In this document: piece after piece, positions 503-57,839 of the stretch
Position numbering within the stretch: position 1 is the stretch's first letter
Layout of the letters: every line of letters begins with the position of its first letter
Source of the DNA: Chryseosolibacter histidinae
GTDB taxonomy: Bacteria > Bacteroidota > Bacteroidia > Cytophagales > Cyclobacteriaceae
Length of the DNA: 64,000 nucleotides
Direction of reading: 5' to 3'
Assembly (NCBI RefSeq): GCF_018598225.1
Contig: NZ_JAHESF010000012.1
Location: 1-64,000 of the forward strand
Made by a program: the position numbers and the translations under genes
The notes under the pieces: model-generated
Told to the model about the DNA's origin: nothing
Seen by the model: only the letters and a program-made list of their open reading frames with translations
The model's database searches: none

Positions 503-578
503 GCTCCTACTCCTCGCTTCTTACTCCTTGCTGCTTACTCCTCCTTCTGACTTCTGGCTCCTGACTTCTGGCTTCTTT
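503..578. repeat. Heptamer tandem repeat, CTCCTNR/CTTCTGR type
   Basis: About eleven consecutive units, nearly all exactly 7 bp, of the form CTCCTNR, then CTTCTGG and CTCCTGA (one unit is 6 bp). No reverse-complement arm is nearby, so this is a one-armed member of the heptamer family seen throughout the window. It lies between the rrn terminator and the next gene. The CTTCTGG/CTCCTG word recurs at 27713-27733. Confidence 0.8.
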
Positions 579-616
579 TTTTCCGTATCTTCATCCCTCG
601 AAATACCGGGTCTGAT

Positions 617-3280
617 TTGAAAAGAACTCCATTACTAATAACAGCAGGAATTGTACTATTCGTGATACTGGGATATTACGCTTATGACGTATTCCTCGTG
701 AAGGATCCCGTAAGACCCTGGGACCTGGTGCCCGCAGATGCCATGATCGTTTACGAAAAGAACAACTGCAATGCGTGCCTGGAAGAAGTGAACAAGTCAT
801 CACTGTTCAACATCATCGAAACTGCAGCCTCTTATAAAAAACCGGTAGACTCTATCAGGAACAGGATCGGGGCCGTGCTGAAAGACAAGCAGGGCTTTCT
901 CATCTCGGTGCACATCACCAAAAAAGACGACTTCGATTTTATTTACTACCTGCCTTACAGCAGCGCCACAACCGAAGATGCCTTCGCTTTTCCGAAAGGC
1001 AACTATAGGCGCAGCACACGCGAGTTCAATTCGGTTCAGATCCAGGAGCTCCGGTTCTCCGGACAGGTATTCTCATACGCCACCATTGGCGAAGTGTGGA
1101 TCGGAAGCTTCACACCCTTCCTGATCGAAGACGTGATCAGGACCTATGAAACCACGCCTGCATCCGAGCGCAAGAAGAATCGTCCGTCACAACAGGGATT
1201 CTCCAGCATTCAGGATGATGGTGGTAATGTATACGTGCGGCTGAAGATCTTTTCCGACTGGCTCTCGCTGTTCACGGCGAAGCCCCTGAACTTCGCGCTT
1301 GGAGAATCTGCCTTGCTTGACCTGAAATCTAACGGGAACAGCGTTGTGCTGAATGGGTTCAGCTACGACAGCCTCGACCGGTCAACGTACATGCTGTCAG
1401 CCTTTCGTCACCAGTCTCCCGTTTCATTTGGGTTGAAGCACGTGGTCTCCAACCGCACCATCGCAGTAAGCAGTTATGGTATCAGCGATGGCGCGGCGTT
1501 TTATGGCGATCTCCAAAAATTTGTCAAGCAGAAAAACCGGGCATTGAGCGATACACTGCTGAAGCTCTCCAGTACCCATAACCTGAAACTTGAAAATTTA
1601 TACAAGCTTATCTCCGACGAATTCAGTGTTTGCTTTCTTGAATCGCTGAAGGGCAGGAAGCTTTCCAGAATACTGCTCGTTGAAAGCAAACAACCGGAGC
1701 AGTGGTTGCAAACACTGAATACCGTCTCTGAAAAGTTGAGCGTTGATACAGTGTTCTTTGAAAGATATTCGCAGTATGAGATCCGGGAGGTACCCGTTTT
1801 CAGATTTTCAGAAAAGTTATTGTGGCCCTTCGTGAGCGGGTTCGATCAGAACTTTTATACATCGGTGGGCCAGGTGATCATCATTGCAGACAACCTCGAG
1901 GAGCTCAAACGATTTCTCGATGATATCGAAGCAGAAGATACCTGGGGAAAGTCGGTATCGCAAAACAGGTTTCTCGAGTCAACGCTCCTGGAATCGAACG
2001 TAAGCCTGTATTTCAATCCTGCGAAAGCATGGAACGTACTCAGCGCGGATCTTCAGCCACGGTGGAGCAATTTTGTGAGGGACAATCAGCCGCTGTTACA
2101 ATCGCTTCAGATGTCGTCTATCCAGTTCAGCCACCTTAACAATAGCTTTTACACCAACGCGTTGTTCACGTATAAACCTTTTGTTGCAACGGCTAAACCG
2201 GAAAAGGGTGGCGACAAGTTCATCACCAATTTTCAGCAAGGTATCTCCAGCCTGCATGCTGTAAGGAGTCATGTGAACCGGAGCAACGAGATCCTCATCC
2301 AGGATTCGCTTAACGATCTGAGCCTGCTCTCTTCCGAAGGAAAATTGTTCTGGAAGGTGCCCATCGGTGATCGCATCATCAGCGATGTAACACAGATCGA
2401 TTTTTTCAACAACGGCAAGCTCCAGTATTTCTTCTCTACTTCCAGCGCCATTCATATCATCGACCGCCTCGGAAATTATGTAGATCCGTATCCGTTACAT
2501 CTTCCCACGGCCGACATCGAGCACGTAAGCGTGATCGATTACGATAACAGTAAAAGGTACAGGATCCTGATCGCGGATAAAAAAGGAAAACTGATGATGT
2601 ATGATAAGTCGGGCGCGCTGCTGGAAGGATGGAATCCCAAAGATGTGGGAGGAAGCCTCGCCATGCCACCGCGACATCATCGCATCAAAGGAAAAGATTA
2701 CATACTGGCGGTGCGCAAAGACGGGCAGGTTTTTCTTATGAACAGAAGAGGCGAGAACCTGAAAAAATTCCCGCTGAACCTCGAGGCAATTCCATCCGGC
2801 GATTATGCGCTCGAGGTGGGCAGCACGATATCGGATACTTATTTCGTGCTCGTTTCGCGTGATGGCTTTAAGATCAGGTTTACTGTTGAGGGTAAGCTCC
2901 AGGGACGGGAAACGCTGTTAAAGACCTCGGTCACATCTAACTTCAGCCTCATCGGTGAAAAATCCAATAAATCTTACCTGATCCTGCAACAAGATGGCAA
3001 GCAGCTCACTATTGCGGATGAATCGGGGAAAAGGATCCTTTCCAACAATATTGTCGGATTAAGCCCGTCAGATATCAAGTATTTTGACTTTGGCGCTGGA
3101 AATGCCTTTATCGGGCTGATAGACCGTACGCAGGGCCTTTCCTACATCTACGACAGCCGCGGCAACCTGCTCACCGAGCCCCCGCTCGAGAGCACCGCAA
3201 TTGAGGTCAGGCCCATAAATTCGGAGCAATTCCGGGTATTTTTCATACATGGCAAGTCGCTGGTGATCCAGCCCCTGTAA
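617..3280 (+). CDS. Membrane-anchored protein with C-terminal propeller-like repeats (unrecognised)
   Basis: This 887-residue protein is not one I recognise by name. Residues ~4-24 form one hydrophobic segment (uncleaved anchor or signal peptide), so most of the chain should lie in the periplasm. The middle (~40-540) has no obvious motif. From ~560 to the end there are repeated short strands ending in DKSGALL, NRRGENL, DESGKRI and DSRGNLL, one per ~45 residues, which is typical of PQQ/WD40-like beta-propellers. The start is a TTG at 617; no ATG is near, and the anchor supports this start. Shine-Dalgarno is weak, as usual in this phylum. It is transcribed alone, 66 bp before the next gene. A structural role in envelope quality control or assembly is possible, but nothing in the sequence proves it. 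Confidence 0.85.
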   Translation: MKRTPLLITAGIVLFVILGYYAYDVFLVKDPVRPWDLVPADAMIVYEKNNCNACLEEVNKSSLFNIIETAASYKKPVDSIRNRIGAVLKDKQGFLISVHITKKDDFDFIYYLPYSSATTEDAFAFPKGNYRRSTREFNSVQIQELRFSGQVFSYATIGEVWIGSFTPFLIEDVIRTYETTPASERKKNRPSQQGFSSIQDDGGNVYVRLKIFSDWLSLFTAKPLNFALGESALLDLKSNGNSVVLNGFSYDSLDRSTYMLSAFRHQSPVSFGLKHVVSNRTIAVSSYGISDGAAFYGDLQKFVKQKNRALSDTLLKLSSTHNLKLENLYKLISDEFSVCFLESLKGRKLSRILLVESKQPEQWLQTLNTVSEKLSVDTVFFERYSQYEIREVPVFRFSEKLLWPFVSGFDQNFYTSVGQVIIIADNLEELKRFLDDIEAEDTWGKSVSQNRFLESTLLESNVSLYFNPAKAWNVLSADLQPRWSNFVRDNQPLLQSLQMSSIQFSHLNNSFYTNALFTYKPFVATAKPEKGGDKFITNFQQGISSLHAVRSHVNRSNEILIQDSLNDLSLLSSEGKLFWKVPIGDRIISDVTQIDFFNNGKLQYFFSTSSAIHIIDRLGNYVDPYPLHLPTADIEHVSVIDYDNSKRYRILIADKKGKLMMYDKSGALLEGWNPKDVGGSLAMPPRHHRIKGKDYILAVRKDGQVFLMNRRGENLKKFPLNLEAIPSGDYALEVGSTISDTYFVLVSRDGFKIRFTVEGKLQGRETLLKTSVTSNFSLIGEKSNKSYLILQQDGKQLTIADESGKRILSNNIVGLSPSDIKYFDFGAGNAFIGLIDRTQGLSYIYDSRGNLLTEPPLESTAIEVRPINSEQFRVFFIHGKSLVIQPL

Positions 3281-3346
3281 GTTTAGTGAACGGTTACTTT
3301 TCTGTAAATGAGGTATTTACAACCACTAAACTAAACTAACTCCGTC

Positions 3347-8198: not shown

Positions 8199-8348
8199 GT
8201 AGGCAGTAGGCAAAGGGGAGTCCATAGTCCATGGTCGATAGTCCATGGTAGGATAGTATTTGATCATCTAGCGTTTCCAGTCTTAGATCGTACCACAGTC
8301 CACGACATTTGCACGCATGCCATGGACTATGGACTATCGACCATCGAC
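8199..8348. repeat. Two-armed heptamer element (GTCCATR)
   Basis: Two GTAGGCA units (8199-8212) and one variant precede four GTCCATR/GTCGATA units (8220-8247). The core is 73 bp, and the reverse-complement arm has four units (8321-8348: CATGGAC, TATGGAC, TATCGAC, CATCGAC). The right arm ends 2 bp before the stop codon of the CHAT gene; the left part reaches the reductase start region. RNA of either strand could fold into a long stem. Confidence 0.88.
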
Positions 8349-8350: not shown

Positions 8351-11300
8351 TTAGATCCCGACCATCACAAAAGCACCCCAGTAGAATGGATGGGGGTATT
8401 TTTCCTTAAGTTTTTGCTGGGCGATGCGGAAGGCCGTGTGCGGGTCTTCCTGCCGCGATCTCTCTGAATAGAAGTTTGACATCAGCTCCTGCGTTGCAGC
8501 GTCATCAACACTCCACAAGCTCATGATCAGGTTTTTGGCACCGGCCATTTTAAACGCACGCTGCAGGCCGTAAACACCTTCGCCGTTTTTCACCACACCC
8601 AATCCTGTTTCGCAGGCCGACAACACCACAAGCTCTGTGTCTTCAAGCTTGAGGTTCATGGCTTCGTATGCGGTGAGAATGCCATCGTCACCATCATCGT
8701 TCACGGGCGTTCCTGTTTTTAGAAAGTTCTCTGCGCCGGCCAGGATGATGCCCGACTTCAGCAGCGGGCTGGGTACATAACCGGTGTTACCTTCCTGGGC
8801 GAGCTGACTGTTTTCTTCCTCTTCCAAAAAGTATCCGTGCGTGGCAATGTGCAGCACCATGGGACTGATCACCTGCTTGATCAAACCTTCAGACGCCATG
8901 TCTTCCATGAAAACCTCGGGGTTAGGACTTAGCTTCGAGATCTGGTTGATCTCGACCTGGGTTCCCGGCAGCACTGTTATACCATCTTCTCCACGCATGT
9001 AACGCAGCAGACCGCCGCGCAGGCCACGCGATAAGTTATCGCCACGGGTGAGGGAGCGTGTGGCGGTACCGGTGGCCGATGACTCCTCGGTTTGTAAATT
9101 GAATTTCGGGAAGCCGATCAGCACGGACGACTGGCTGTTCGATTTTGTTGTTCTCTTTTCCACCACCTCGCGGGTGTTGGTTACCAGCCTGATGTCATAG
9201 GCATCTAGCAGGAATTGCTGCGTTTCAGGATCTCTGATGGTGTTCAGGCTGATCTGGTTATAAACGCCATCGGGTGAGAGGTATATTTTTTTGATCTTAT
9301 TTTTCTTCAGGTACTCGTTCAGCGAGCCGAAATAGTTTTTGAACGACCTGTTGTCTTCGAGTGTGAACGTGATGTTGTTGCGATAATAGTTGAGGAATTT
9401 GTTTTCCATCTCTTTACCGCTTCCTGGCAACACAAGGTCGGGCTGAGTTTTGGTGTCTTTTGTCAGGATGAGGAAAGCGTACACAACGTCGTCCTGGAAT
9501 TTGCCGCCGGCCGCGGGTGAGTAAGCCTGATAACGAATGATCTCAACGGCAGCTTCGTTTTCTTTCAGTGTTTTTTGAATGTCGCGCCAGTCAACTTTTT
9601 TGCGGATGAACTGGCTTGAAAAAACTGCCGATCTGCGGGCCAGCGCTTTCTCCAGGAGATCTGCCGACTGCAGCAATGAATCGATCTTCGCGGGAGACTG
9701 GTTCTGGCTGTACAGTTTGGCGATCTGTTCTTTTTGTGATTGCCACAGCTCAAAATCGCGCAACAGCGTGGTGTCTTTGCTGTTTTGGATGGCCTCCTTC
9801 ACTTTTTCAGAGGCGTACATGATAGACGCCTTGGTGTTGATGTGATGGTTGTACACTTCGCCTGTGATGAGCGGGTCTTGTTTGCGGAGCTCCATGGCAA
9901 ACGAGTTGAAGATCTCGAACGATGGTTTGATGTTGGTGTAATAGAACTTCGCTTTCTCTTCTTCGGTGAGCACCGGGAACGACATGCCGATCTGATTGTA
10001 GTAATTTTCAAACACGGCACCGAACGTTTGCTGCGCTTCTTTCAATTGTTTCTGCTCCCATTGATACTCGGCTATCTTCTGAAGGCTCTGTGCGTACAGC
10101 GGATGTTTTTTGCCAAGCTTTTCAGCACGGATAGAGGCTGAGCTCTTCAGATACTTCAGTCCGGCAGCACCCTTGCCGGTTTTCCAGCAGGCGATGCCCA
10201 GGTTATACAAGGTGGATGCGTATTCTGGACTTTTATCACCCAGCGTTTTTTTGAAGATGGCCAACGCCTGTTCCAGCATCGGAATAGCTTTGTCAGGCGC
10301 ACCTGCCATCCTGTATACGCGGGCAAGGTTGTTGAGCTTGCGGGCGTAAGACGCTGTATTGGTCTCGTCATTCATTTTCTGGATCTCGAGCGCGCGTGTC
10401 AGCGACTTCTCTGCTGCCTTGAATTTACCTTCATCGCTGTACACCAGGCCCATGTTAGAGAGTGTAATGGCAAAGTCAGGGTGCGTGGTGCCGATAACAA
10501 CGCTGTCGGTAGCGCGGATCTCACGGAAGGTCTTTTCAGCGCGTTCGAGCTGGCCGAGGCTTTGATAGACCAGGGCCTGGTTGTTGAGCGTTGCGGGGTA
10601 AGCAACATTGTCGGGCGTGAGCTCTGCAAGCGCATGGTCAAACGCTTCTTCAGCCTGTGGAAATTTTCCCTGCTCCATGCAGAGGATGCCCATGTTGATC
10701 GACGCGCTGATGTACTCCGCTGAGCTCTCTCCGGCAGCTTTTGCCAGGATGGTGAGCGCGGTATTCAACGCTTTCGCAGCTTTTGAATATTGGCTGGTAA
10801 GCGTATACAGGTCGCCAAGCTTGCTCAGCAGCAGGCCGTGGTTGATTGAATTCTTTTCCTGTTGCCTGATGGTGGACGTCAGCAATTTTTCTGTCTCGTT
10901 GAACTTGTCGAGCTGGATGTAAATATCAGTGGTGCTGATCACAGACGATATGAATTCTTCGCTGGCGGCACCATAGATCTTGCGGTCGTTCTCGATGAGC
11001 TGATCGGCCATGAGGCCTGCCTGCCGATAGTTGCCCGCCTGCAGGTAAACATAGGCGAGGTTATACAACGAGCTGCTGAAGGCATCGGTGCTGGTGAGTC
11101 CCAGGTCTGCCCGTAATACTTTCTCACGTTCGAACCACGCAATGGCTTTATTCAGGTCGCCCAGCTGATTGTGTGCACTGCCGAGGTAAGAGAAACTATT
11201 GGCCACCAGCGTGTCGTGCTGATTTTTTGCCATCAGCTCAACATCGTTCGCCAGCTTGATGCAGGCAGCGAAATTCTGCGCTTCATAGTTCCGTTCCAGC

Positions 11301-11398
11301 TCCTGGTAAACTTTTGGTGTTGTCTGTGCGAAACATACGTTCACAGATGCCACGAATACCCAGAAATAGCGATTTGATCTCCCGAAAAAATTAATCAT
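8351..11398 (-). CDS. Secreted TPR-CHAT domain protein (caspase-like peptidase fold)
   Basis: A 1015-residue protein has an N-terminal signal peptide (hydrophobic YFWVFVASVNVCFA, cleavage near residue 24-25), then about ten tetratricopeptide repeats (~30-480; for example ASINMGILCMEQGKFPQAEE), a helical linker (~490-620), and a C-terminal CHAT domain (~680-1015). The caspase-type dyad is present: His854 in LHIATHGYF and Cys929 in VVLSACETG. CHAT proteins (Caspase HetF Associated with TPRs) are clan CD peptidases known from cyanobacterial HetF and from defence-linked proteases. Export to the periplasm or surface sets this one apart. It lies 19 bp after the giant LRR protein gene and is probably in one transcript with it, so that protein is a candidate partner or substrate (inference). 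Confidence 0.92.
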   Translation of the reverse strand: MINFFGRSNRYFWVFVASVNVCFAQTTPKVYQELERNYEAQNFAACIKLANDVELMAKNQHDTLVANSFSYLGSAHNQLGDLNKAIAWFEREKVLRADLGLTSTDAFSSSLYNLAYVYLQAGNYRQAGLMADQLIENDRKIYGAASEEFISSVISTTDIYIQLDKFNETEKLLTSTIRQQEKNSINHGLLLSKLGDLYTLTSQYSKAAKALNTALTILAKAAGESSAEYISASINMGILCMEQGKFPQAEEAFDHALAELTPDNVAYPATLNNQALVYQSLGQLERAEKTFREIRATDSVVIGTTHPDFAITLSNMGLVYSDEGKFKAAEKSLTRALEIQKMNDETNTASYARKLNNLARVYRMAGAPDKAIPMLEQALAIFKKTLGDKSPEYASTLYNLGIACWKTGKGAAGLKYLKSSASIRAEKLGKKHPLYAQSLQKIAEYQWEQKQLKEAQQTFGAVFENYYNQIGMSFPVLTEEEKAKFYYTNIKPSFEIFNSFAMELRKQDPLITGEVYNHHINTKASIMYASEKVKEAIQNSKDTTLLRDFELWQSQKEQIAKLYSQNQSPAKIDSLLQSADLLEKALARRSAVFSSQFIRKKVDWRDIQKTLKENEAAVEIIRYQAYSPAAGGKFQDDVVYAFLILTKDTKTQPDLVLPGSGKEMENKFLNYYRNNITFTLEDNRSFKNYFGSLNEYLKKNKIKKIYLSPDGVYNQISLNTIRDPETQQFLLDAYDIRLVTNTREVVEKRTTKSNSQSSVLIGFPKFNLQTEESSATGTATRSLTRGDNLSRGLRGGLLRYMRGEDGITVLPGTQVEINQISKLSPNPEVFMEDMASEGLIKQVISPMVLHIATHGYFLEEEENSQLAQEGNTGYVPSPLLKSGIILAGAENFLKTGTPVNDDGDDGILTAYEAMNLKLEDTELVVLSACETGLGVVKNGEGVYGLQRAFKMAGAKNLIMSLWSVDDAATQELMSNFYSERSRQEDPHTAFRIAQQKLKEKYPHPFYWGAFVMVGI

Positions 11399-16256: not shown

Positions 16257-16390
16257 AACGATAAGATTAAAGCAGTAAGGTTTAAGATCCCGAATCCAAC
16301 GCCACGGATGCCGGGTGGATTAACGACGAATTATTTTCAAATTAAGTGGAAAGAACAGGGGCTAAAAATACCTGACATCAGGTAGTTCCG

Positions 16391-16470
16391 GTAATCAGTA
16401 ATCGGTGATCGGTGACCGGTAATGCATGGTATAAACCCAAACCGATTACTGAATACCAATTACCGATTAC
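16391..16470. repeat. Two-armed heptamer element (GTAATCR)
   Basis: The left arm has five units (16391-16425: GTAATCA, GTAATCG, GTGATCG, GTGACCG, GTAATGC). The right arm has four reverse-complement units (16443-16470: CGATTAC, TGAATAC, CAATTAC, CGATTAC). The right arm abuts the stop codon of the lipoprotein gene with no gap. The heptamer word differs from the GTCCATR sites but the architecture is the same. Confidence 0.88.
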
Positions 16471-16914
16471 CTATTTTTTAAGTGTAAAGACCACTTTCCC
16501 GGGAATCGAGCGCTGCCTTCCGCCTTCATAAGTGGTTTTGTCCCATTGCAACGACAATTTGAGCTCTGTCTTGCTCACGGTTTCGATGGTGATCTCCTTG
16601 TCGTCCTGGCCCCTGAGCATCACGGTGGCTGTGTTATCCTTAAATCTCCAGGTATCTTCCCTGAGCCATACGGGCGTGGTGCCGGTAGTAAATAGCTTGT
16701 CGGCGGTAAAGGTGATCGTAAAATCTTTAAAAAGATCGCTTGTTACGTCCAGGCCGTCAATAGTAATGGCTGCCGTGCCTGAGGGAGCCCATTGTCCGCC
16801 TTCGGTTAACAGTGCTGTTACCTGTTTTTCTTTGCTAACGGGTTTCGGATCGTCTTTACAGGATACCAATAACAGGGCTGTTACCAGCAAAATGGAGGTC
16901 AGAAGGTTTTTCAT
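16471..16914 (-). CDS. Small lipoprotein, paralogue of the one at 41853
   Basis: A 147-residue lipoprotein: hydrophobic SILLVTALLLVSC with a lipobox cysteine at ~19, then a charged spacer. The body contains WAPSGTAAITIDGLDVTSDLF, TTGTTPVWLREDTWRFKD, GQDDKEITI and LSLQWDKTTYEGGR, a small beta-rich fold I cannot name securely (it resembles DUF5004-like Bacteroidota lipoproteins). It lies just upstream of the giant LRR gene in the same direction. The plus-strand paralogue at 41853-42335 likewise accompanies an LRR-type T9SS protein. That repeated pairing suggests the lipoprotein and the T9SS cargo work together. Confidence 0.85.
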   Translation of the reverse strand: MKNLLTSILLVTALLLVSCKDDPKPVSKEKQVTALLTEGGQWAPSGTAAITIDGLDVTSDLFKDFTITFTADKLFTTGTTPVWLREDTWRFKDNTATVMLRGQDDKEITIETVSKTELKLSLQWDKTTYEGGRQRSIPGKVVFTLKK

Positions 16915-17089: not shown

Positions 17090-17272
17090 GTCCGCGGTCC
17101 ACAGTCGACAGTCCACGGCAGTGCCAGTGGTATTGGGGGACCATCTCTCATGTCACGTCAAGGGATTCCTGACCCACTGCATTTCCCAATTCCTAATGTC
17201 TAATTCCTGTTTCCAGCTCCGAACTAATATAACACTAACCTGGCTGTGGTCTGTGGACCGTCGACTGTGGAC
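17090..17272. repeat. Two-armed heptamer element (GTCCACR) with an inner heptamer run
   Basis: Left arm 17090-17117 (GTCCGCG, GTCCACA, GTCGACA, GTCCACG); right arm 17245-17272 (TGTGGTC, TGTGGAC, CGTCGAC, TGTGGAC). The core holds a separate run of AATTCCT, AATGTCT, AATTCCT at 17188-17208, again with 7-bp period. The right arm ends 7 bp before the stop of the DUF4249 gene. Confidence 0.88.
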
Positions 17273-17279
17273 TCTTCAA

Positions 17280-20604: not shown

Positions 20605-20718
20605 GTCCACGGTCTATGGTCCATGGTCCATGGCCGTACATCATTTGCCTCTGGAATCGGAGCTTGCATTGAGGCCGGGCACCACGCGGCTATTGACTAT
20701 GGACTATCGACTATGGAC
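20605..20718. repeat. Two-armed heptamer element (GTCCATG) in a divergent promoter region
   Basis: Left arm 20605-20632 (GTCCACG, GTCTATG, GTCCATG, GTCCATG); right arm 20691-20718 (TATTGAC, TATGGAC, TATCGAC, TATGGAC). It is between the divergent starts of the TonB receptor and the OmpA lipoprotein, so at this site the element cannot be serving merely as a terminator for converging genes. Confidence 0.88.
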
Positions 20719-20765
20719 TGTTCTAATAATTCTTTATTTTTCGGACAAATAACATTTTTTAACCT

Positions 20766-21713: not shown

Positions 21714-21725
21714 CCTGTAAACACC

Positions 21726-21893
21726 ATGAGCAGGCTCATATCATTACTCATCCTGGTGATCGACGTTATCGTGATCATCGACATCGTTCGCAGCAACAAA
21801 GACACCGAAAAGAAGATCCTGTGGATCATCGCCGTAGTATTTCTTCCCGTGCTCGGCCCGATCTTGTATTACTTCCTCGGTAACAGGAGGTAG
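21726..21893 (+). CDS. PLDc_N (phospholipase D nuclease N-terminal) membrane peptide
   Basis: A 55-residue protein, too short for the usual ORF cut-off. It has two hydrophobic helices (LISLLILVIDVIVIIDIV and IAVVFLPVLGPILYYFLG) separated by a charged RSNKDTEKKILW linker. The WIIAVVFLPVLGPILYYFLG ending is the signature of the PLDc_N domain, found at the N-terminus of cardiolipin synthases and as free small proteins. It starts 12 bp after the OmpA gene with ATG at 21726 and is probably co-transcribed with it. A heptamer element begins 4 bp after its stop codon. Confidence 0.85.
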   Translation: MSRLISLLILVIDVIVIIDIVRSNKDTEKKILWIIAVVFLPVLGPILYYFLGNRR

Positions 21894-21897: not shown

Positions 21898-21946
21898 GTC
21901 CACGGACCACGGTCCACGGTAGGGCGTGTAACGTCTTGCGGTGGAC
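21898..21946. repeat. Short heptamer element (GTCCACG)
   Basis: Three units (21898-21918: GTCCACG, GACCACG, GTCCACG), a short core containing GTAGGGCGTGTAACGTC, then one reverse-complement unit at 21940-21946 followed by a T-rich stretch. This is a reduced member of the family and might act as a terminator for the OmpA/PLDc_N transcript. Confidence 0.75.
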
Positions 21947-22019: not shown

Positions 22020-22270
22020 CGGGCTATCCGCTGCAAGTCCTCCGCCGGCGCGCGAGCCATCGGGTGCGGGCTTTCCGCTGCTATCCCTAACGCTGGGTGC
22101 TTCGATTGAGAGGTGCGTGTTTGGCAACTCGGGTGTGGATGGCGTGGGGGGAGGACACCATGGTGTGTATTGCGCCTTTAGCGTGGGGCTTACACCCCAC
22201 GCTAGTTATGGCGCCCTTTCAGGGCTCGCCTTTGGATCGACCCTTTCAGGGTTTCGGACCCTGGAAGGGT
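22020..22270. repeat. Repeat-rich non-coding spacer: 21-bp direct repeat and three hairpins
   Basis: No gene is supported between 21947 and 22280. Seen here: two copies of CGGGCTWTCCGCTGC plus six further similar bases (22020-22040 and 22067-22087); a hairpin with GCGTGGGG at 22181-22188 pairing CCCCACGC at 22195-22202; a GCCC/GGGC hairpin at 22212-22223; and a 13-bp stem at 22240-22252/22258-22270 (ACCCTTTCAGGGT type). The last resembles the hairpin at 27671-27704. Open readings across this stretch have no coding character. Confidence 0.6.
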
Positions 22271-27606: not shown

Positions 27607-27670
27607 GATCCCATGAAAAAGACCATCTCACACTTTTTCTCATTGGCACGAGTTCCCAAAAGTTGAACGC

Positions 27671-27733
27671 AACCCTTTGAGGGGTTCAAAACCCTCAAAG
27701 GGTTGGTAAAGCCTTCTGGCTCCTGGCTTCTTT
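27671..27733. repeat. ACCCTTTGAGGG hairpin and a short heptamer run
   Basis: A perfect 13-bp stem (27671-27683 with 27692-27704; AACCCTTTGAGGG type) resembles the hairpin at 22240-22270. It is followed by three 7-bp units (CTTCTGG, CTCCTGG, CTTCTTT; 27713-27733), the same word as in the repeat at 503-578. Confidence 0.7.
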
Positions 27734-30034: not shown

Positions 30035-30673
30035 ATGGCTAAGGTCATTTCTTTCATTAGCAGGAAAGGTGGTACAGGCAAAACCACCAACGCTATCAAC
30101 CTTGCAACCACGCTGCATCAGCTGGGCAAAAGGGTCATTTTGGTGGAAACAGACACCAACTATACCCTCAATACCCTCCGTAAAATGGAGGCATTCAAGG
30201 CTCAGAACGGCAAATCGCAAGAAAACGGGAAGGGCTTTGACATACTGGGCTCGCAAGACAATGAGGTGGCAGGCGAGCTGGCCGCCATCCGCGAAAGCAG
30301 AAAGACCGATGTGGTGATAGTAGACAGCGCCGGCAAAACTACCGACGAGGGTATTAAAAAGCTTTGCCTGGTGAGCGATGTTGTAGTAGTGCCTACCAGT
30401 CTTACCCAGAACGACCTGCTCGTAACTTACCAAACTGTAACGGACCTTGCCCCGGCACGTGAGCTTAACCCCAGGCTGAAGATCTTGATCCTTCCCAACC
30501 GCATTCACAGCGGCACCAACCTGTATACCGTGAGGGACAACCTGAAGAACCTCGATGCCATCATTCTGCCGATCATCGTTCCGCAAAAAAACCTGTTCGT
30601 CAACTTCAGCACCGTAGAACCTGAGAAAGAATACCAGCCCATCGCCAACGAAATCTTAAAGCACCTGTCATGA
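30035..30673 (+). CDS. ParA/MinD-like ATPase
   Basis: A 212-residue ParA-type Walker ATPase: the deviant Walker A KGGTGKTT at ~11-18 (signature lysine present), switch I/II region VVIVDSAGKTTDEGIKK near 90, and VVVPTSLTQNDLL. It lacks an N-terminal HTH, so it resembles small ParA proteins that position cargo (McdA, ParC, PpfA type) or partition plasmids. It overlaps the next gene by 4 bp (ATGA), whose product is probably its partner. No parS-like repeat is evident. Chromosomal context argues for cargo positioning rather than plasmid partition, but this is inference. Confidence 0.9.
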   Translation: MAKVISFISRKGGTGKTTNAINLATTLHQLGKRVILVETDTNYTLNTLRKMEAFKAQNGKSQENGKGFDILGSQDNEVAGELAAIRESRKTDVVIVDSAGKTTDEGIKKLCLVSDVVVVPTSLTQNDLLVTYQTVTDLAPARELNPRLKILILPNRIHSGTNLYTVRDNLKNLDAIILPIIVPQKNLFVNFSTVEPEKEYQPIANEILKHLS

Positions 30674-31068
30674 GCAAGAAGAAGAATACGCTGAAAGATC
30701 TCGACGAATTTTTAAAACAACAGGCAGCCACACTGGCACCTCCTTCAAAGCTGAGCGACAGAGTGCAGGCACCGGTTCAGAAAACCGTTCAGGAAGAAGC
30801 TCCGGAACCACAAGAAGAAGCGCCAATACAGCAGAATGGACATCACGTGTCAGCCGAGCAGCTGTTGAACGACCTTCGCGCCTTTGCAAAAAAAGAAGGC
30901 CACGGTTTCAGGCATCAGTTATATGATCTTATCATCAGGTCAGTAGAATCACAAAACCAGTTTTCAGCCGAAGACCGCATGCTGATCAACACAGCGTTGT
31001 ATCTCAAGAGCGGTGATCAGTGGCAGGACTCGATCAGGGAATATTGGAGGAAGAAAAATAGTCCATAG
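30670..31068 (+). CDS. Putative ParA partner protein
   Basis: A 132-residue protein, translationally coupled to parA (4-bp overlap). The N-terminus is basic and helical (KKKNTLKDLDEFLKQQAATL), then comes a Pro/Glu/Gln-rich linker (~40-65), and a compact helical C-domain (~72-125: SAEQLLNDLRAFAKKEG, HQLYDLIIRSVESQN). A basic N-terminus that could touch a ParA ATPase is typical of ParB-like or McdB-like partners. Not a recognised family. The last codons and stop (TAG at 31066-31068) lie inside the first unit of a heptamer repeat, so the C-terminus was set by that element. Confidence 0.8.
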   Translation: MSKKKNTLKDLDEFLKQQAATLAPPSKLSDRVQAPVQKTVQEEAPEPQEEAPIQQNGHHVSAEQLLNDLRAFAKKEGHGFRHQLYDLIIRSVESQNQFSAEDRMLINTALYLKSGDQWQDSIREYWRKKNSP

Positions 31069-31218
31069 TCGATGGTCCATAGTCCATGGACGTGAATTGC
31101 TGATTCTTGTATTGCCGACTATTCATGGTGCGGTGAGTCCCGATAGCTATCGGAATACAACGCACCATATTGAATCTTCACCTGCTCTGCCATGGACTAT
31201 CGACCATGGACCATGGAC
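31061..31218. repeat. Two-armed heptamer element (GTCCATR) between convergent genes
   Basis: Left arm 31061-31088 (GTCCATA, GTCGATG, GTCCATA, GTCCATG); right arm 31191-31218 (CATGGAC, TATCGAC, CATGGAC, CATGGAC). The core contains GGTGCGGTGAG and the palindrome CCGATAGCTATCGG with an outer TGGTGCG/CGCACCA stem. The left arm supplies the stop codon of the ParA partner; the right arm ends 5 bp before the stop of the T9SS gene. Confidence 0.9.
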
Positions 31219-33680: not shown

Positions 33681-34826
33681 ATGAAATTCGGAACCAAAGC
33701 AGTGCATGCAGGCGTAGCACCAGATCCTTCAACAGGAGCCATCATGACGCCTATTTTTCAAACTTCAACCTATGTTCAGGAGGCTCCGGCCAAACATAAA
33801 GGGTATGCTTACGCGCGGGGGGCAAACCCTACACGCAACACGCTGCAGCAAAGCCTGGCAGCACTGGAGAATGGAAAGTTCGCCATCTGCTTTTCGTCTG
33901 GCATGGGCGCCACCGATGCAGTGATCAAGTTGCTGAACCCTGGCGACGAAGTAATCACCAGCAACGATCTCTATGGCGGATCGTACCGGATGTTCAAACG
34001 CGTGTTTGAAAAGTACGGCATCAAATTCCATTTCACGGACCTCACCCATGCCGACAACGTCAAGCCGCTCATCAACAACAAAACCAAACTGTTCTGGCTG
34101 GAGACACCCACCAATCCGCTCATGAACATTGTCGATATCAAGGCCTTCACCGACATCGCCAAAAAGAACAACATCCTGGTAGCGGTAGATAACACTTTTG
34201 CATCGCCTTACCTTCAGAATCCCCTTGACCTGGGGGCAGACATTGTGATGCACTCTGTTACCAAATACCTGGGCGGACACTCTGATGTGATCATGGGAGC
34301 GCTTGTGCTGAATGATGAAAAGCTTTACCAGGAGCTGGCCTTCATTCAGAACTCGTGCGGTGCGGTTCCCGGTCCACAGGACTCGTTCCTTGTGCTGCGC
34401 GGTATCAAGACCCTTCATCTCCGCATGGAGCGCCACTGCATCAACGGTCGCAAGGTGGCTGAGTACCTGAAGAAACATCCGAAGGTGGGCAAGGTTTACT
34501 GGCCGGGATTCTCCGATCATCCCAACCACGAGATCGCCAAAAAACAAATGCGCGATTTCGGTGGAATGCTTTCGTTCACCCTTAAAGACGATAGCGTTGA
34601 AAAAGCAAATAAACTGATGGTAAGTGTTGAGCTGTTCTCGCTGGCAGAATCGCTGGGCGGTGTTGAATCGCTCATCAGCCACCCCGCATCAATGACCCAC
34701 GCCAGCATCCCCAAAGAAGAACGCATCAAGAGTGGTCTCGTAGACTCGCTGATCCGCCTGAGCATAGGCGTGGAAGATCATGAGGACCTGATCGCGGATT
34801 TAGAGCAGGCACTCGGGAAGGTTTAA
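33681..34826 (+). CDS. Trans-sulfuration PLP enzyme (cystathionine gamma-synthase/lyase family)
   Basis: A 381-residue Cys/Met-metabolism PLP enzyme. Seen are YAYARGANPTRNTLQQSLAALE, the phosphate-binding SSGMGATDA (~72-80), WLETPTNPLMNI, VAVDNTFASPY, and the Schiff-base Lys195 in HSVTKYLGGHSDV. The end has SLGGVESLISHPASMTHASIP and LIRLSIGVEDHEDLIADL. Family members make or cleave cystathionine (MetB, MetC, MccB); the sequence alone does not settle which, so I give no symbol. Cytoplasmic and probably monocistronic. It is followed 3 bp after its stop by a heptamer element that separates it from a convergent small gene. Confidence 0.92.
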   Translation: MKFGTKAVHAGVAPDPSTGAIMTPIFQTSTYVQEAPAKHKGYAYARGANPTRNTLQQSLAALENGKFAICFSSGMGATDAVIKLLNPGDEVITSNDLYGGSYRMFKRVFEKYGIKFHFTDLTHADNVKPLINNKTKLFWLETPTNPLMNIVDIKAFTDIAKKNNILVAVDNTFASPYLQNPLDLGADIVMHSVTKYLGGHSDVIMGALVLNDEKLYQELAFIQNSCGAVPGPQDSFLVLRGIKTLHLRMERHCINGRKVAEYLKKHPKVGKVYWPGFSDHPNHEIAKKQMRDFGGMLSFTLKDDSVEKANKLMVSVELFSLAESLGGVESLISHPASMTHASIPKEERIKSGLVDSLIRLSIGVEDHEDLIADLEQALGKV

Positions 34827-34829: not shown

Positions 34830-34974
34830 GTTGCCGGTTGCCAGTTACCGGTTGCCAGTTTCGTGCGGTGTAAATTTCACCATCCGGTTTCTTCAGTGTG
34901 GACTGGAGAAACACTCTCCGTTCATTCCATGACACGCGTTTAAACCGGCAACCGGTAACTGGCAACTGGTAACC
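34830..34974. repeat. Two-armed heptamer element (GTTGCCR) between convergent genes
   Basis: Left arm 34830-34857 (GTTGCCG, GTTGCCA, GTTACCG, GTTGCCA); right arm 34943-34974 (AACCGGC, AACCGGT, AACTGGC, AACTGGT, then AACC). It starts 3 bp after one stop codon and ends 6 bp before the other. The core begins with a GTGCGGTGTAA segment also found in other elements. Confidence 0.9.
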
Positions 34975-34980: not shown

Positions 34981-35307
34981 CTAGTTGGCGCGCGGCCGAT
35001 CCTGCCTGTCGTGCTTCTGGCGTGAGATGTCACGGCTGGCGCGGTTTTGTTTGCGTTGCAGCCTGGCACGTTCGCGGTCTGTTACCGTACCGTCTGCCTC
35101 GGCCCTGTGCTCTGTTCTGCGGATGTTACGTTGTTCAGCCCTGAGTTTTTTGGCTTCAGCACGCGTTACCTCGCCTGACGCCACGCCTTCGCGGATGCGG
35201 GCATTTTGATTTTGCTGGCGTGCATCCACCAGAGGCGTTTCCTGCGCATAGGCCACACCCGACCCGATCAGCACCAACAGTACCCCTAATACCATGATCG
35301 TTTTCAT
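34981..35307 (-). CDS. Small secreted highly charged protein
   Basis: A 108-residue protein: signal peptide (MVLGVLLVLIGSGVAYA, cleavage before QETP), then a mature part that is almost wholly charged and helical. About 30 residues are Arg or Lys (RADGTVTDRERARLQRKQNRASRDI). One acidic DGTVTDRE segment resembles a calcium-binding or EF-hand-like turn. No family recognised beyond periplasmic basic proteins found across Bacteroidota. Monocistronic. Confidence 0.75.
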   Translation of the reverse strand: MKTIMVLGVLLVLIGSGVAYAQETPLVDARQQNQNARIREGVASGEVTRAEAKKLRAEQRNIRRTEHRAEADGTVTDRERARLQRKQNRASRDISRQKHDRQDRPRAN

Positions 35308-35356
35308 AATTGTTCAGTTAGTTTTGTTGCCCCTTTGACAACAAAGAGAGGGGAAG

Positions 35357-35439
35357 GTTTAAAGTTTCAGGTTTAAAGTTGTGCTTCGAACGAAGGGTGA
35401 CCTCAACTTTAAACTTCTAACTTTAAACTTTAAACTTGT
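35357..35439. repeat. Two-armed heptamer element (GTTTAAA) that encodes the kinase C-terminus
   Basis: Left arm 35357-35384 (GTTTAAA, GTTTCAG, GTTTAAA, GTTGTGC); right arm 35405-35439 (AACTTTA, AACTTCT, AACTTTA, AACTTTA, AACTTGT), with a short 20-bp core. The stop codon (35430-35432) and last codons of the histidine kinase lie inside the right arm. Confidence 0.9.
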
Positions 35440-37520
35440 TGCTTCTCCTGCGGAAACCTCACAACGAACTCACTGCCGTTTTTGTGATCGGAGTGAAGCT
35501 CGATCTTGCCTTTGAGGCGGTCTACCAGTGTTTTTACGATGGCGAGGCCCAATCCATTGGAGCTTTCGCCTGCGGTGGGTCTGGCGCTGAGCTTTTTGAA
35601 TTTCTGAAAGAGCTGTTCCTTGTCTTGTGAGGTGAAGCCAGGCCCTTTGTCTTTGATGCGGATCCAGAACTCATGGTCTGTGCGGTCTGCGGAGATATCT
35701 ATGGTTGAGCTCTTCGGAGAGAATTTGATGGCGTTAGAAAGCAGGTTGTCAAAGATCCTGTCAAGGTAATCCTTATCGATGTGCACCTCTTCATTCTCTA
35801 CACGTGTGATGTTGAGATGGATCTTCTTGGCTTCAGCTTCGGGCGCAAATGCTTCTGTTCTTTCGAGCAGGAATTTGCTGATATCGAACGATGAATAATT
35901 AGGCTCTACGTTCTCCTCCAGCATGTGCACATCCAGCAGGTCGGTGATCAGGCCGAGGCCGGAGCGGGTGGCGGCTTTGACCATGGCCACATATTCAAGG
36001 TGTTCTTTGCTGAGCTGCCCGTCTGTCTCGAGCAGGTAAATGATGCCATCGATGCGGTTGAGTGGCGATTTAAGATCGTGCGCCACGATGCTCATCAGTG
36101 TATCTTTTTCGTGGTTGAGCTCCGAGAGCTGATGATTGCGTTTAGACAACTTTTCATTCTGGCGGATGATCTCCTCACGCTGCTGCTGGATCTCCACATT
36201 CTGCTGCAGAAGTTTTTCATTGATGGCCCTGCGCTTCTTTCCGTTCAGCCATTGCAGCACACCCAGCAGGCTTACGCCCACCACAATCACGGCAAGTGTT
36301 ATGTTCTGCAGTTTTTGTTGCTGGATAATGGCATCGTTCCGCGCCTGCCGGGCCTTCAGCAACTCGTTTTCCTGTTCCTTGCGGGCGATCTCGATCTCAA
36401 ACTGCATGCGCTCCACCTGCCGGGTAAGATCCAGGTCCTTGACAGAATCTTTCAAAAGCAGGTAAAGGTTCTGGTGCACCAGGCTTTCGCTCCTGTTGTG
36501 TTGCTTGTCCGAGATCTGCCATAGAAAATAGCTGGCATCCATTTTCGCGTTGAGGTCCTTGGTGCGGGTGGCGATGTCGAGCGACATGGAGAAATATTTC
36601 TTGGCACCATTGAGATCGTTTCGCTTGAGCAGTACCTGGCCCATGGTGCCATAGGCATTTGGCAGCATGCGGGTGTTGTTCTTGGCCTGGATCACCTTCA
36701 GTCCCTCTTTGCACATGGCCTCCGCTTCATTGAGCATGCCCGTGATCATGTATGATTTTGCCAGGAAGGTTTTGATCTCGGCCAGGTTGATCTCGTCGTT
36801 GATCACATGCCCAGTGGAATCGGCAAGTTTAAAGAAGCTGACGGATTTTTCAGGCTGGTTCGATTCCAGGTAATTTCGGCCCAGGTACACCATGGCCGAC
36901 ATGATATCGCGCGGATTGCCCAGTGATAGCCTGATCTGATAAGCCTTCAGGAAACTGTCTTCGGCTTTGGCGTAGTCGCGCTGGCTTTGATACAGGTTGC
37001 CGATGCTCTGATAGACATAGGCCAGTCCTGATGAATCGTTCAGCGCTGTGAAAAGCAGGCGCGCCTTTACAAAATAGTCATACGATCTTGAGAGCAGCCC
37101 CTGCTCGTAGAACAACCTGCCGATGTTGTTATTGGAGTGTGCAATCTGCAGGGAATCCTGTTGCAGAATGGAGAGATCCAGTGCACGGCTGTAGTATTCA
37201 AAAGCTTTGATCCGCTCCCCTTTGTAATTATAGGCCAGGCCCATGAAGTTGAGCGATTTTGCCAGCCCTTTGCTGAGGTTGAGGTCTTCGCCCAGGGCGT
37301 AGGCGCGGTTGCTGTAAAAGATGGTGCTGTCAGGGTTCGCGAACCGGTGTTCCCAGGCCAGGTCATTGAGCAGGTTGAAGCGCTCCGTTCCCGTTTTGCC
37401 CCGCAGCCGGTGCCTGAGGCTGTCGATCAGGTGAAGATTTTGTGCAAAGGAGACAAGTGGCAACAGCCAAAGAGAAACAATGATGCATGTCTGTCTTACG
37501 TTGGGCTTACCTCCGAGCAT
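35430..37520 (-). CDS. TPR-containing sensor histidine kinase
   Basis: A 696-residue kinase: N-terminal signal/anchor (TCIIVSLWLLPLVSFA), about eight TPRs (~30-350), a membrane helix (~405-425, LAVIVVGVSLLGVLQWL), a coiled coil (~430-470), HisKA with phospho-acceptor His481 in SIVAHDLKSPLNRI, and HATPase_c with N-box DNLLSNAIKFSP and G-boxes KDKGPGF and NGLGLAIVKTLV. The TPR part lies in the periplasm, the catalytic part in the cytoplasm. No response regulator is adjacent (orphan kinase). The end of the gene runs into a heptamer repeat. Confidence 0.93.
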   Translation of the reverse strand: MLGGKPNVRQTCIIVSLWLLPLVSFAQNLHLIDSLRHRLRGKTGTERFNLLNDLAWEHRFANPDSTIFYSNRAYALGEDLNLSKGLAKSLNFMGLAYNYKGERIKAFEYYSRALDLSILQQDSLQIAHSNNNIGRLFYEQGLLSRSYDYFVKARLLFTALNDSSGLAYVYQSIGNLYQSQRDYAKAEDSFLKAYQIRLSLGNPRDIMSAMVYLGRNYLESNQPEKSVSFFKLADSTGHVINDEINLAEIKTFLAKSYMITGMLNEAEAMCKEGLKVIQAKNNTRMLPNAYGTMGQVLLKRNDLNGAKKYFSMSLDIATRTKDLNAKMDASYFLWQISDKQHNRSESLVHQNLYLLLKDSVKDLDLTRQVERMQFEIEIARKEQENELLKARQARNDAIIQQQKLQNITLAVIVVGVSLLGVLQWLNGKKRRAINEKLLQQNVEIQQQREEIIRQNEKLSKRNHQLSELNHEKDTLMSIVAHDLKSPLNRIDGIIYLLETDGQLSKEHLEYVAMVKAATRSGLGLITDLLDVHMLEENVEPNYSSFDISKFLLERTEAFAPEAEAKKIHLNITRVENEEVHIDKDYLDRIFDNLLSNAIKFSPKSSTIDISADRTDHEFWIRIKDKGPGFTSQDKEQLFQKFKKLSARPTAGESSNGLGLAIVKTLVDRLKGKIELHSDHKNGSEFVVRFPQEKQQV

Positions 37521-37701
37521 TTAAGACAAAGTTAAACAATCATTCGAACAATGAATGCCGTCATAATGAATTTGTTAGCTGTGCAGGTGGTCAGTCCACT
37601 TCCTCAAAATTGATCGCGGCCATTAGGTCTCGTCAATAACCCTCAGGACGATGAAGTGATCACAATCTGAGGCCAATATCGGATGCCGAACACTACACGG
37701 C

Positions 37702-37729
37702 TGTGGTCTGTGGACTGTCGACCGTGGAC
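37702..37729. repeat. One-armed heptamer element (TGTGGAC)
   Basis: Four units (TGTGGTC, TGTGGAC, TGTCGAC, CGTGGAC) of the right-arm orientation. The sequence just before (ATATCGGATGCCGAACACTACACGG) resembles the 3' core of the element at 45232. No left arm is seen. It lies in the 355-bp divergent region 37521-37875, which otherwise holds no gene. Confidence 0.75.
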
Positions 37730-45231: not shown

Positions 45232-45368
45232 GTCCAAGGTCGACAGACCACTGTCCACGGTAGTGCGGTGTGACATCGACTAATCGTACCTCGTTACTTT
45301 GTTCCTTCAAGGCAGCAGCTATCCGGATACACACATCGGCCGTGGAATGTCGACGGTGGACCGTGGGC
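45232..45368. repeat. Two-armed heptamer element (GTCCAAG/GTCCACG)
   Basis: Left arm 45232-45259 (GTCCAAG, GTCGACA, GACCACT, GTCCACG), preceded by two ATTGACA units; right arm 45341-45368 (CGTGGAA, TGTCGAC, GGTGGAC, CGTGGGC). The core begins GTAGTGCGGTGTGACATC and ends with AGCTATCCGGATACACAC, segments that recur in other elements. It lies 24 bp after the DUF1080 stop and before the YceI gene. Confidence 0.87.
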
Positions 45369-55082: not shown

Positions 55083-55087
55083 TCAAA

Positions 55088-56769: not shown

Positions 56770-57234
56770 AACAACGGGATGCCTTTTCGCTTCAAAAGGC
56801 AACGAAAACTTTAAGTTTAGAAAATAGACTTCGATCAACTCGGAGGGAAAGAGTATTTGGCTTACATGGGTTAAGTTAGGTATTATCTGTTTTTTTTCCC
56901 TGCGCCGCTGCAGTAAAAAATTATACTGAATACTCCCTTTTCTTACATCGTTTTAGTAGAAATTACGGTAGCGGTATTTGCCGTTTTTTGCAGGTTTTTT
57001 GGGCTAATCCATACAATGATACAGCCTTTCAATCGATTCCCGACACCCGAATTTACCGGTAACAAAACGTATTTTTCGATAAAAGCACCATCCCAGGGGT
57101 TGCCGCGCAAAGTTTGTTTTGCCCCGGGTAAATAAAATGTTTAACTGTTTTATTAAATTTATAGTAGGTTGTCATGAAAAACTGGCAGACCGCGGGAATG
57201 TCAGGATAAAATTAGGAGCCCAACTTATTTCGCC
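56770..57234. other. Divergent intergenic region before the complete ECF sigma gene
   Basis: No gene is supported in these 465 bp. It is AT-rich with several T-tracts (56888-56895, 56978-57000) and GTTTAACTGTTTTATTAAATTT near 57141, likely the sigma promoter. No repeat of the heptamer family is present. Confidence 0.5.
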
Positions 57235-57801
57235 ATGCAAGCCCCCTACGATGAAAAGAAAGCCCTTGCGCTACTGGCGCTAGGTAGCGAAACCGCTTTT
57301 CGGCAGATCTATGACCAGTACGCACCTGCGATTTACAGGGTGGCTACACGGTATTTCCAGTCTGCCGAGCTGGCCGAAGACCTTGTACAGGAGATCTTTT
57401 CCAGTCTCTGGCTAAAACGGGAGGAGTTTTGCAGGGTGCAGGAGTTCAGGTTTTACCTGTTCACCATGGCTAAGAACCTGGCCATCACATACCTTAAAAA
57501 AATGGCCCGGCAATCGCTCGTAAACCAGGAATTTTCAGACCGTCAGGGTATAGACAGTACTAACTTCGACCGCTACGAAGAGTTGCTCCAGCAGGCTGTA
57601 GCACAGCTTCCGCCGCAGCAGAAGCAGATCTTCAACATGGCCAAGGTAAATGGCATGAGCCACGAGCATATTGCCCGGCAACTGAACCTTTCGCCCAGCA
57701 CCGTCAATAACCACATGGTTGCAGCCCTCAAGTTCATTCGCCAGCATGTACCCCGTTATATCATTCAGCTTGCGTTTATTCAGCGCCTTTTTGACCAATA
57801 G
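57235..57801 (+). CDS. ECF RNA polymerase sigma factor (FecI-like), complete
   Basis: A 188-residue ECF sigma: region 2 (~20-90: GSETAFRQIYDQYAPAIYRVATRYFQSAELAEDLVQEIFSSLW) and region 4 (~125-180: AVAQLPPQQKQIFNMAKVNGMSHEHIARQLNLSPSTVNNHMVAALKFI with the HTH). It should be released by the FecR encoded 183 bp downstream and recruit RNA polymerase to its target promoters. Unlike its relative at 47189 it has both binding regions. Its stop codon (57799-57801) lies in the first unit of a heptamer element, so the last residues FDQ end at the element edge. Confidence 0.95.
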   Translation: MQAPYDEKKALALLALGSETAFRQIYDQYAPAIYRVATRYFQSAELAEDLVQEIFSSLWLKREEFCRVQEFRFYLFTMAKNLAITYLKKMARQSLVNQEFSDRQGIDSTNFDRYEELLQQAVAQLPPQQKQIFNMAKVNGMSHEHIARQLNLSPSTVNNHMVAALKFIRQHVPRYIIQLAFIQRLFDQ

Positions 57802-57839
57802 GCAGTAGGCAAAGGGCAATAGGTTTGCCTACCGCCTGC
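57798..57839. repeat. Compact heptamer element (RTAGGCA)
   Basis: ATAGGCA, GTAGGCA, AAGGGCA, ATAGGTT, then the reverse-complement units TGCCTAC and CGCCTGC (57826-57839). It forms a short hairpin directly at the sigma gene stop. The GTAGGCA word also occurs at 8199-8212. Confidence 0.85.

What the first reader, a model, noticed from the sequence alone, without database searches (positions are those of the whole stretch)
503..57839. A genome-scale family of inverted heptamer repeats (7-bp period) in intergenic sites
At twelve sites, short words repeat in steps of exactly 7 bp (503-578, 8199-8348, 16391-16470, 17090-17272, 20605-20718, 21898-21946, 27713-27733, 31061-31218, 34830-34974, 35357-35439, 45232-45368, 57798-57839), with a further single arm at 37702. 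Most have left arm, unique core and reverse-complement right arm. The word changes (GTCCATR, GTTGCCR, GTAATCR, GTTTAAA, RTAGGCA) while the architecture and period stay the same, and within one site the two arms co-vary. Heptanucleotide STRR repeats are known from filamentous cyanobacteria (established); a paired, word-swapping version in a Bacteroidota chromosome is, to my knowledge, not described. The co-variation implies selection for pairing or a copying mechanism that renews both arms.
Basis: partly seen in the sequence, partly recalled or inferred. Interest (0 to 1): 0.88.

Follow-up and report, generated by a model that had tools for sequence, protein, structure and literature searches.

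The report
Paired seven-base repeat arms after genes
This bacterium's genome carries an estimated two thousand short arrays of seven-letter DNA words, often set as mirror-image pairs right after the ends of genes, in several word families that are nearly absent from the relatives examined, and how such word arrays get copied around a genome is not known.

Summary
The repeats are real. In 439 kb, runs repeating at lag 7 number 86, against 0-4 at lags other than 14 and 0 at lag 7 in one shuffle. In 1.039 Mb there are 308 arrays; 269 fit eight degenerate words. Neighbouring left/right arms share a word in 73 of 81 cases (15.5 expected); right-before-left order was not seen within 300 bp. Of 67 non-divergent pairs, 54 lie within 15 bp of a stop codon.

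Cores are mostly unrelated. No target duplications or REP tags, no RVT_1 match. One of two like elements carries a second word's arm on each side of the same core. So the arm, not the whole element, appears to be what is copied.

Best reading: REPIN/BIME-like extragenic hairpins with STRR-type heptamer arms, kept as gene 3' ends. Paired heptamers are known from a Nostoc intron. Copying mechanism unknown. New variant of a known kind.

The parts
510..576 (-). two neighbouring heptamer arrays (words AAGNAGY and AGRAGYC, right-arm sense) between the 5S rRNA gene and the next gene; no inverted partner
8219..8249 (+). left arm, word GTCSAYR (T sub-type), four units
8320..8348 (-). right arm of the same pair, 2 bp from the stop of gene 8351-11398 (-)
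16389..16422 (+). left arm, word GTRWTCR
16441..16475 (-). right arm, word GTRWTCR, overlapping the stop of gene 16471-16914 (-)
17090..17118 (+). left arm, word GTCSAYR (C sub-type)
17244..17273 (-). right arm, word GTCSAYR, 7 bp from a stop codon
20605..20635 (+). left arm, word GTCSAYR; divergent gene pair; no array in the orthologous interval of G002
20688..20721 (-). right arm, word GTCSAYR
21898..21920 (+). three-unit left arm, word GTCCACG, after the small gene 21725-21893; G002 has an array of another word at the corresponding 3' end
31058..31089 (+). left arm, word GTCSAYR; overlaps the stop codon of gene 30670-31068 (+)
31190..31218 (-). right arm, 5 bp from the stop of gene 31224-32360 (-)
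34830..34860 (+). left arm, word GTTRCCR, 3 bp after the stop of gene 33681-34826 (+), a Cys/Met-metabolism PLP enzyme
34943..34973 (-). right arm, word GTTRCCR, 7 bp from the stop of gene 34981-35307 (-)
35354..35380 (+). left arm, word GTTTNAR
35405..35437 (-). right arm, word GTTTNAR, overlapping the stop of gene 35430-37520 (-)
37701..37729 (-). solo right arm, word GTCSAYR
45232..45261 (+). left arm, word GTCSAYR, decayed; found by the word scan only
45339..45368 (-). right arm, word GTCSAYR, decayed; found by the word scan only
57798..57839 (.). weak RTAGGCA-type array with an imperfect inverted partner; seen by eye, below both scan thresholds

Best explanation
A population of extragenic inverted-repeat elements that is built and placed like REPINs/BIMEs, but whose two arms are tandem arrays of a degenerate heptamer (STRR-type). 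Shown: period 7; shared word and fixed polarity of neighbouring arms; placement just after stop codons; mostly unrelated cores; word families nearly private to this genome among those searched; a pair of like elements, one of which has arms of a second word on both sides of the same core. Inferred: the arm (about 28-40 bp) is the copied unit, deposited on both sides of existing intergenic DNA in inverted sense; the resulting long imperfect hairpin is kept where it serves as, or replaces, the 3' end of one or two transcripts (terminator or exonuclease barrier); near-perfect pairs of arms are lost or selected against. What copies the arms is not known.
For: Period and abundance. Word sharing 73 of 81 vs 15.5 expected. 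Polarity: 107 neighbouring pairs of assigned arms within 300 bp are +- (79), ++ (15) or -- (13), none -+. Placement: convergent intervals hold 88 arms vs 31.7 expected by length, divergent 34 vs 88.9 (own gene caller); 54 of 67 non-divergent pairs lie within 15 bp of a stop vs 37.2 for random placement in the same interval, maximum 45 in 1000 trials. Intrinsic terminators, stop to next gene: 4 of 56 codirectional 3' ends with an arm at the stop vs 47 of 165 without, P 8e-4; in a fixed 220-base stretch 1 of 56 vs 43 of 187 codirectional and 6 of 67 vs 38 of 177 convergent. Cores: 80 cores, 7 between-site similarities among 3160 pairs, 3 of them one shared palindrome. Arms of a second word around a shared core: C26 167160-167377 vs 168975-169123. 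Three of four folded sites are strong RNA hairpins, z -9.7, -6.5, -4.9.
Against: In the interval-wide test convergent 3' ends show no significant terminator deficit (8/67 vs 25/113, P 0.11). One of four folded sites is no better a hairpin than shuffles (z -1.07). Six of 73 pairs lie between divergent genes. 117 of 269 assigned arms have no same-word partner within 320 bp. Inverted same-word neighbours are not the rule in related genomes: G028 0 of 16, G002 9 of 26. No transcript data. Gene ends come from my own simple caller. That the second word's arms were gained rather than lost is inferred, from one pair of elements.
Confidence: 0.5

Rival explanations
1. Whole-element transposition (MITE): arm-core-arm moves as one piece by a transposase acting on terminal inverted repeats.
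For: GTCSAYR arms have mostly four units with recurrent outer (AGA) and inner (GC) edges; two close-lying pairs of sites share core and word (C11 218499/220044, C31 16631/20566).
Against: Cores are unrelated in nearly all comparisons while 92-95% of the invariant arm bases are kept; no excess of shared flanking words (6-mers shared in 0/39 and 1/21); no transposase among the three proteins tested between distant solo arms.
Confidence: 0.15
2. REPIN proper, moved by a REP-associated tyrosine transposase.
For: Inverted doublets, extragenic, hundreds of matches, spacing of the same order (GTCSAYR gap between arms 66-123 bp in 20 of 28 pairs; REPIN doublets 71 and 110 bp, measured differently, PMC3116915, passages). 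Own genome has four Y1_Tnp matches, one with a heptamer pair 205 bp past the gene end.
Against: Single GTCSAYR arms fold no better than shuffled (-2.61 vs -2.49) and neither word carries a fixed GTAG/CGTC tag; heptamer arrays lie in 1 of 4 loci of about 3.2 kb around Y1 matches, which the density of arrays would give by chance; G005 (93% complete) has 15 RGTTTVA matches and no Y1_Tnp match.
Confidence: 0.12
3. Selection for base pairing, or hairpin-templated correction, makes the two arms follow each other.
For: Shared word and shared C/T sub-type.
Against: In-register excess of mismatches at the other degenerate positions (264 vs 228, 0 of 5000); no G:U preference on the sense strand.
Confidence: 0.08
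4. Repeat addition: a polymerase adds heptamer units to the two 3' ends at a broken or nicked place (telomerase-like or by slippage), and the ends are joined around whatever DNA lies between.
For: Would explain fixed polarity, same word on both sides, independent unit order, unrelated cores, composite arms and solo arms. Bacterial RTs that add short tandem repeats exist (DRT10, 9-nt repeats, PMC12632851, abstract and passages).
Against: No RVT_1 match in this genome. Mostly four-unit GTCSAYR arms with unit-specific variants do not look like open-ended addition.
Confidence: 0.15
5. Arrays are binding sites of proteins that read contiguous 7-bp units, as the pSM19035 ParB/omega protein does with heptads.
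For: At least four contiguous heptads are needed for full activity there (PMC9499535, passages), and GTCSAYR arms mostly have four units; two-state degeneracy looks like tolerated positions.
Against: Needs many proteins with different words in one genome; gives no route for copying to hundreds of sites. No candidate protein was sought.
Confidence: 0.1

Closest known systems
REPIN / REP doublets (BIMEs)
   Same: extragenic inverted doublets, hundreds of copies, spacing of the same order, predicted hairpins (PMC3116915, abstract and passages); REP ends often supply a neighbouring stop codon (PMC3733652, passages)
   Different: arms are tandem heptamers; no GTAG/CGTC tag; no link to a Y1 transposase shown
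STRR heptanucleotide repeats of filamentous cyanobacteria
   Same: tandem degenerate heptamers between genes (name and definition recalled; no paper on them was read)
   Different: here often inverted pairs with fixed polarity, close to stop codons, several words in one genome
[quoted passage not shown]
   Same: degenerate heptamers that base-pair into a hairpin; two repeat-motif classes (PMC3488679, passages)
   Different: one locus inside an intron, not hundreds of intergenic sites
TAACTGA repeats of Beggiatoaceae, cyanobacteria and some Bacteroidetes
   Same: heptamer arrays between genes, also in Bacteroidetes (PMC4679880, abstract and passages)
   Different: direct arrays of one word, mostly just upstream of start codons in the main genome described
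ParB/omega heptads of plasmid pSM19035
   Same: contiguous 7-bp units, at least four needed (PMC9499535, passages)
   Different: a plasmid partition site for one protein

Membership tests
REPIN / REP | extragenic, high-copy, doublets in inverted orientation | tested here: met
   289 of 308 arrays intergenic
REPIN / REP | each unit an imperfect palindrome | tested here: inconclusive
   single-arm folding like shuffled for GTCSAYR (-2.61 vs -2.49), somewhat stronger for GTTRCCR (-3.37 vs -2.56)
REPIN / REP | GTAG or CGTC tag at one end | tested here: not met
   any one of five tag words at any one end in at most 9 of 78 GTCSAYR arms and at most 1 of 42 GTTRCCR arms
REPIN / REP | cognate RAYT beside copies of the repeat | tested here: inconclusive
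   heptamer pair in 1 of 4 loci around Y1_Tnp matches
MITE | target-site duplication | tested here: not met
   no excess of shared 4- to 7-mers in the 14 bases outside 39+21 elements; older, decayed duplications would be missed
MITE | homologous interior among copies | tested here: not met
   80 cores, 7 between-site similarities in 3160 pairs, 3 due to one palindrome
STRR | tandem degenerate heptamers in intergenic DNA (definition recalled) | tested here: met
Nostoc trnL P6b repeats | inside a group I intron | tested here: not met
   Rfam search of the window finds only 5S rRNA and Acido-Lenti-1
RT-made tandem repeats (DRT10-like) | reverse transcriptase in the genome | tested here: not met
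   0 RVT_1 matches at E 0.001 in G000; a very divergent RT or one in an assembly gap is not excluded
intrinsic terminator | short G+C hairpin followed by a T run | tested here: not met
   3' ends with an arm at the stop are poorer, not richer, in such sites

The most novel reading that the evidence does not exclude
A bacterial process writes the same seven-base word, in inverted sense, on both sides of existing intergenic DNA. It is neither transposition of an element with its contents nor mutual correction of the arms: the arms are added as units, repeatedly and with changing words, so that each lineage has its own vocabulary at the ends of its genes.
Probability: 0.2. Interest if true: 0.85.

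Novelty: new variant of a known kind. Interest (0 to 1): 0.62.

Why it matters
An estimated 2000 arrays in one 8 Mb genome (363 found in 1.439 Mb, 25 per 100 kb), in word families that are absent or rare in 58 relatives including two of the same genus, mean fast turnover at gene 3' ends. If arms and not whole elements are copied, this is a route of repeat spread that REP, MITE and slippage models do not cover, and it is directly testable by comparing strains. [quoted passage not shown]

Tried and rejected
Reverse-transcriptase (telomerase-like) origin in its simple form: attractive on anatomy, but no RVT_1 match in G000; kept only as a generic repeat-addition rival. RAYT link: arrays in 1 of 4 loci around Y1 matches; G005 has one of the words without a Y1 match. 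Autonomous element between distant solo arms: of four +/- combinations found, the three proteins tested are a Peptidase_S74-domain protein, an HhH-GPD repair protein and one without a Pfam match. RNA-level wobble pairing: no bias. Shared positions with G002: of 36 orthologous 3' ends, arms at 7 here (two of the 7 flank one and the same element) and at 1 in G002, the same one, P 0.19, so nearly all of these positions differ; two further shared positions (after gene 21725-21893 and after 5S rRNA) were seen by eye only. Mirror versus same order of two words in composite arms: both occur, no claim made. The inner motif GTGYRGTGTGA shared by GTCSAYR and GTTRCCR elements (10 of 70 and 7 of 42 arm insides at two mismatches or fewer, 0.4% of random 24-mers) was picked by eye from the same elements, so its enrichment is partly circular. 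The expectation that related genomes show paired arms failed in part: of neighbouring arrays within 300 bp, inverted same-word in own 85 of 136, G002 9 of 26, G028 0 of 16, G019 1 of 2; the G028 and G019 stretches were chosen because they hold GTCSAYR matches, so their densities are biased. Of 80 named loci fetched around one gene in other genomes I scanned 48; 39 of the 48 had no lag-7 run. In one search the reversed control is not empty in some relatives (G002 3 matches against 4 in the control, G035 0 against 8), so the low counts there mean little.

Rows dropped: 39 of 308 arrays not assignable to a word were left out of the pairing counts. The position and terminator tests cover the 1.039 Mb for which I called genes, not the later 0.4 Mb. 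The in-register test covers only four-unit arms of two words (39 and 21 pairs) in 1.439 Mb. The RNA fold was run on 4 sites.
Full report
OBSERVATION. The listed sites were read directly. Eight of twelve are inverted pairs (one of them, 45232, decayed and found only by the word scan), one is a same-sense double array (503-578), one is a left arm with a vestigial partner (21898), and two (27713, 57798) are weak and below both scan thresholds. In 439 kb of this genome lag 7 gives 86 runs and lag 14 gives 74; the other lags from 4 to 15 give 0-4, and one shuffled copy gives 0 at lag 7. A transition-tolerant scan of 1.039 Mb gives 308 arrays; 269 fit eight degenerate words: GTCSAYR 62, GTTTNAR 54, GTTRCCR 50, RTACGAR 36, GTRWTCR 26, AGRAGYC 20, AAGNAGY 17, RTAGGCA 4.

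HOST AND DISTRIBUTION. The window is the start of contig C26 of an 8.04 Mb genome in 122 contigs. Three-unit patterns count 514 (GTCSAYR), 294 (GTTRCCR), 179 (RTACGAR) and 324 (RGTTTVA) in this genome; among the 58 relatives searched they occur in 5, 0, 1 and 8 genomes, with at most 15 matches in any one. Same-genus G002 has arrays of its own, mostly other words, 62 in 460 kb. The GTCSAYR word also occurs in 40 stretches of the viral-contig collection, 3 of the 40 with an inverted pair, and in five relatives, so words recur in other lineages.

ARCHITECTURE. Neighbouring left and right arms share the word in 73 of 81 cases against 15.5 expected. Among 107 neighbouring pairs of assigned arms within 300 bp none has a right arm before a left arm. 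GTCSAYR arms mostly have four units with recurrent AGA outer and GC inner edges, and their GTCGAY unit lies mostly in position 2 or 3. There are 25 same-sense neighbours with different words (15 ++ and 10 --), some directly fused. Of 269 assigned arms 117 have no same-word partner within 320 bp.

ARMS DO NOT MATCH UNIT BY UNIT. For 39 GTCSAYR and 21 GTTRCCR four-unit pairs, the C/T position of GTCSAYR agrees between arms (21 mismatches vs 75.2), but the other main degenerate positions mismatch more often in register than when right arms are shuffled among sites: 163 vs 143.9 (P 0.007), 101 vs 84.6 (P 0.006), together 264 vs 228.4, reached by 0 of 5000 shuffles. This argues against selection for exact pairing and against in-register correction. 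Mismatches do not favour G:U on the sense strand. A plausible reason, inferred only, is that near-perfect long hairpins are lost.

POSITION. With my own gene caller, arms number 88 in convergent intervals (31.7 expected by length), 167 in codirectional (168.4) and 34 in divergent (88.9); 16 of 308 fall in genes and 3 at edges. Of 67 non-divergent pairs 54 lie within 15 bp of a stop codon; random placement inside the same intervals gives 37.2 on average and at most 45 in 1000 trials. In convergent intervals the spare DNA beside the pair has a median of 9 bp. Codirectional 3' ends with an arm at the stop rarely have an intrinsic terminator before the next gene (4 of 56 against 47 of 165, P 8e-4); for convergent ends the difference is not significant (8 of 67 against 25 of 113, P 0.11); a first version with a fixed stretch gave 1/56 vs 43/187 and 6/67 vs 38/177 (P 0.025). 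At gene 33681-34826 the element is present here, while G002 has a hairpin followed by a T run downstream of the orthologue (by eye). RNA folding of four sites gave z of -9.7, -6.5, -4.9 and -1.07.

CORES. Among 80 cores of 40-260 bp, 7 between-site similarities were found in 3160 pairs, 3 of them due to one palindrome (TCCCGATAGCTATCGGGA); shuffled cores gave none. Invariant arm positions are kept at 94.6% and 92.1%. So arms are shared while cores mostly are not. Two elements 1.8 kb apart share core and GTTTNAR arms, but one has in addition a GTTRCCR arm on each side; gain is the simpler reading, though loss is not excluded. Two pairs of sites with like cores bear the same word (C11, C31), and one further pair (C30/C36) shares a 32-bp core piece but different words.

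COMPARISON WITH G002. At 36 orthologous gene 3' ends, arms are present at 7 here (six elements) and at 1 in G002, the same one, with partly different words. The orthologous interval of site 20605 lacks an array in G002. The flanks are too diverged to show clean empty sites.

MACHINERY. No RVT_1 match in this genome. Four Y1_Tnp matches, one with a heptamer pair nearby. G005 has 15 RGTTTVA matches and no Y1_Tnp match. No excess of shared flanking words, no fixed REP tag, and no palindromic single arms in GTCSAYR. Rfam has no family at the sites in the window.

READING. The elements work like REPINs/BIMEs at gene 3' ends but fail the REP tag test and two MITE tests, target duplication and homologous interior. 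Their arms belong in kind with STRR heptamers (recalled). Paired, two-class heptamers are already known in the Nostoc trnL intron (PMC3488679, passages), so pairing and word change are not wholly new. New here, as far as my searches reach, are the scale, the number of words, the fixed polarity, the placement at stop codons, the unit-level anti-match and the independence of arms from cores. The mechanism of copying is open; I hold arm-wise copying with 3'-end function at 0.5.

Noticed in passing
window 31130-31170; also C27:66185, C27:151410, C26:154555 of the same genome: A separate palindrome like TCCCGATAGCTATCGGGA lies inside several cores; its 16-bp centre occurs 10 times in the 1.44 Mb read. 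It looks like an unrelated small repeat family.
   Followed up: partly
window 22182-22226: Rfam match to Acido-Lenti-1 RNA, 41.2 bits against a gathering score of 37, some 260 bp past the arm at 21898-21920.
   Followed up: no
window 27670-27705: Inverted repeat (AACCCTTTGAGGGGTT and AACCCTCAAAGGGTT) just before the weak array at 27713.
   Followed up: no
L225 (G001 C122), 3' end of the orthologue of 33681-34826: G001 has a short inverted repeat GTTTAGGGTTAAAG...CTTTAACCCTAAAC after the stop, like a two-unit version of the arms (by eye).
   Followed up: no
L057, L059, L060, L061 (G028): G028 stretches hold many period-7 arrays of other words (28 in 100 kb, biased choice of stretches) but no inverted same-word neighbours among 16 neighbouring pairs.
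   Followed up: no
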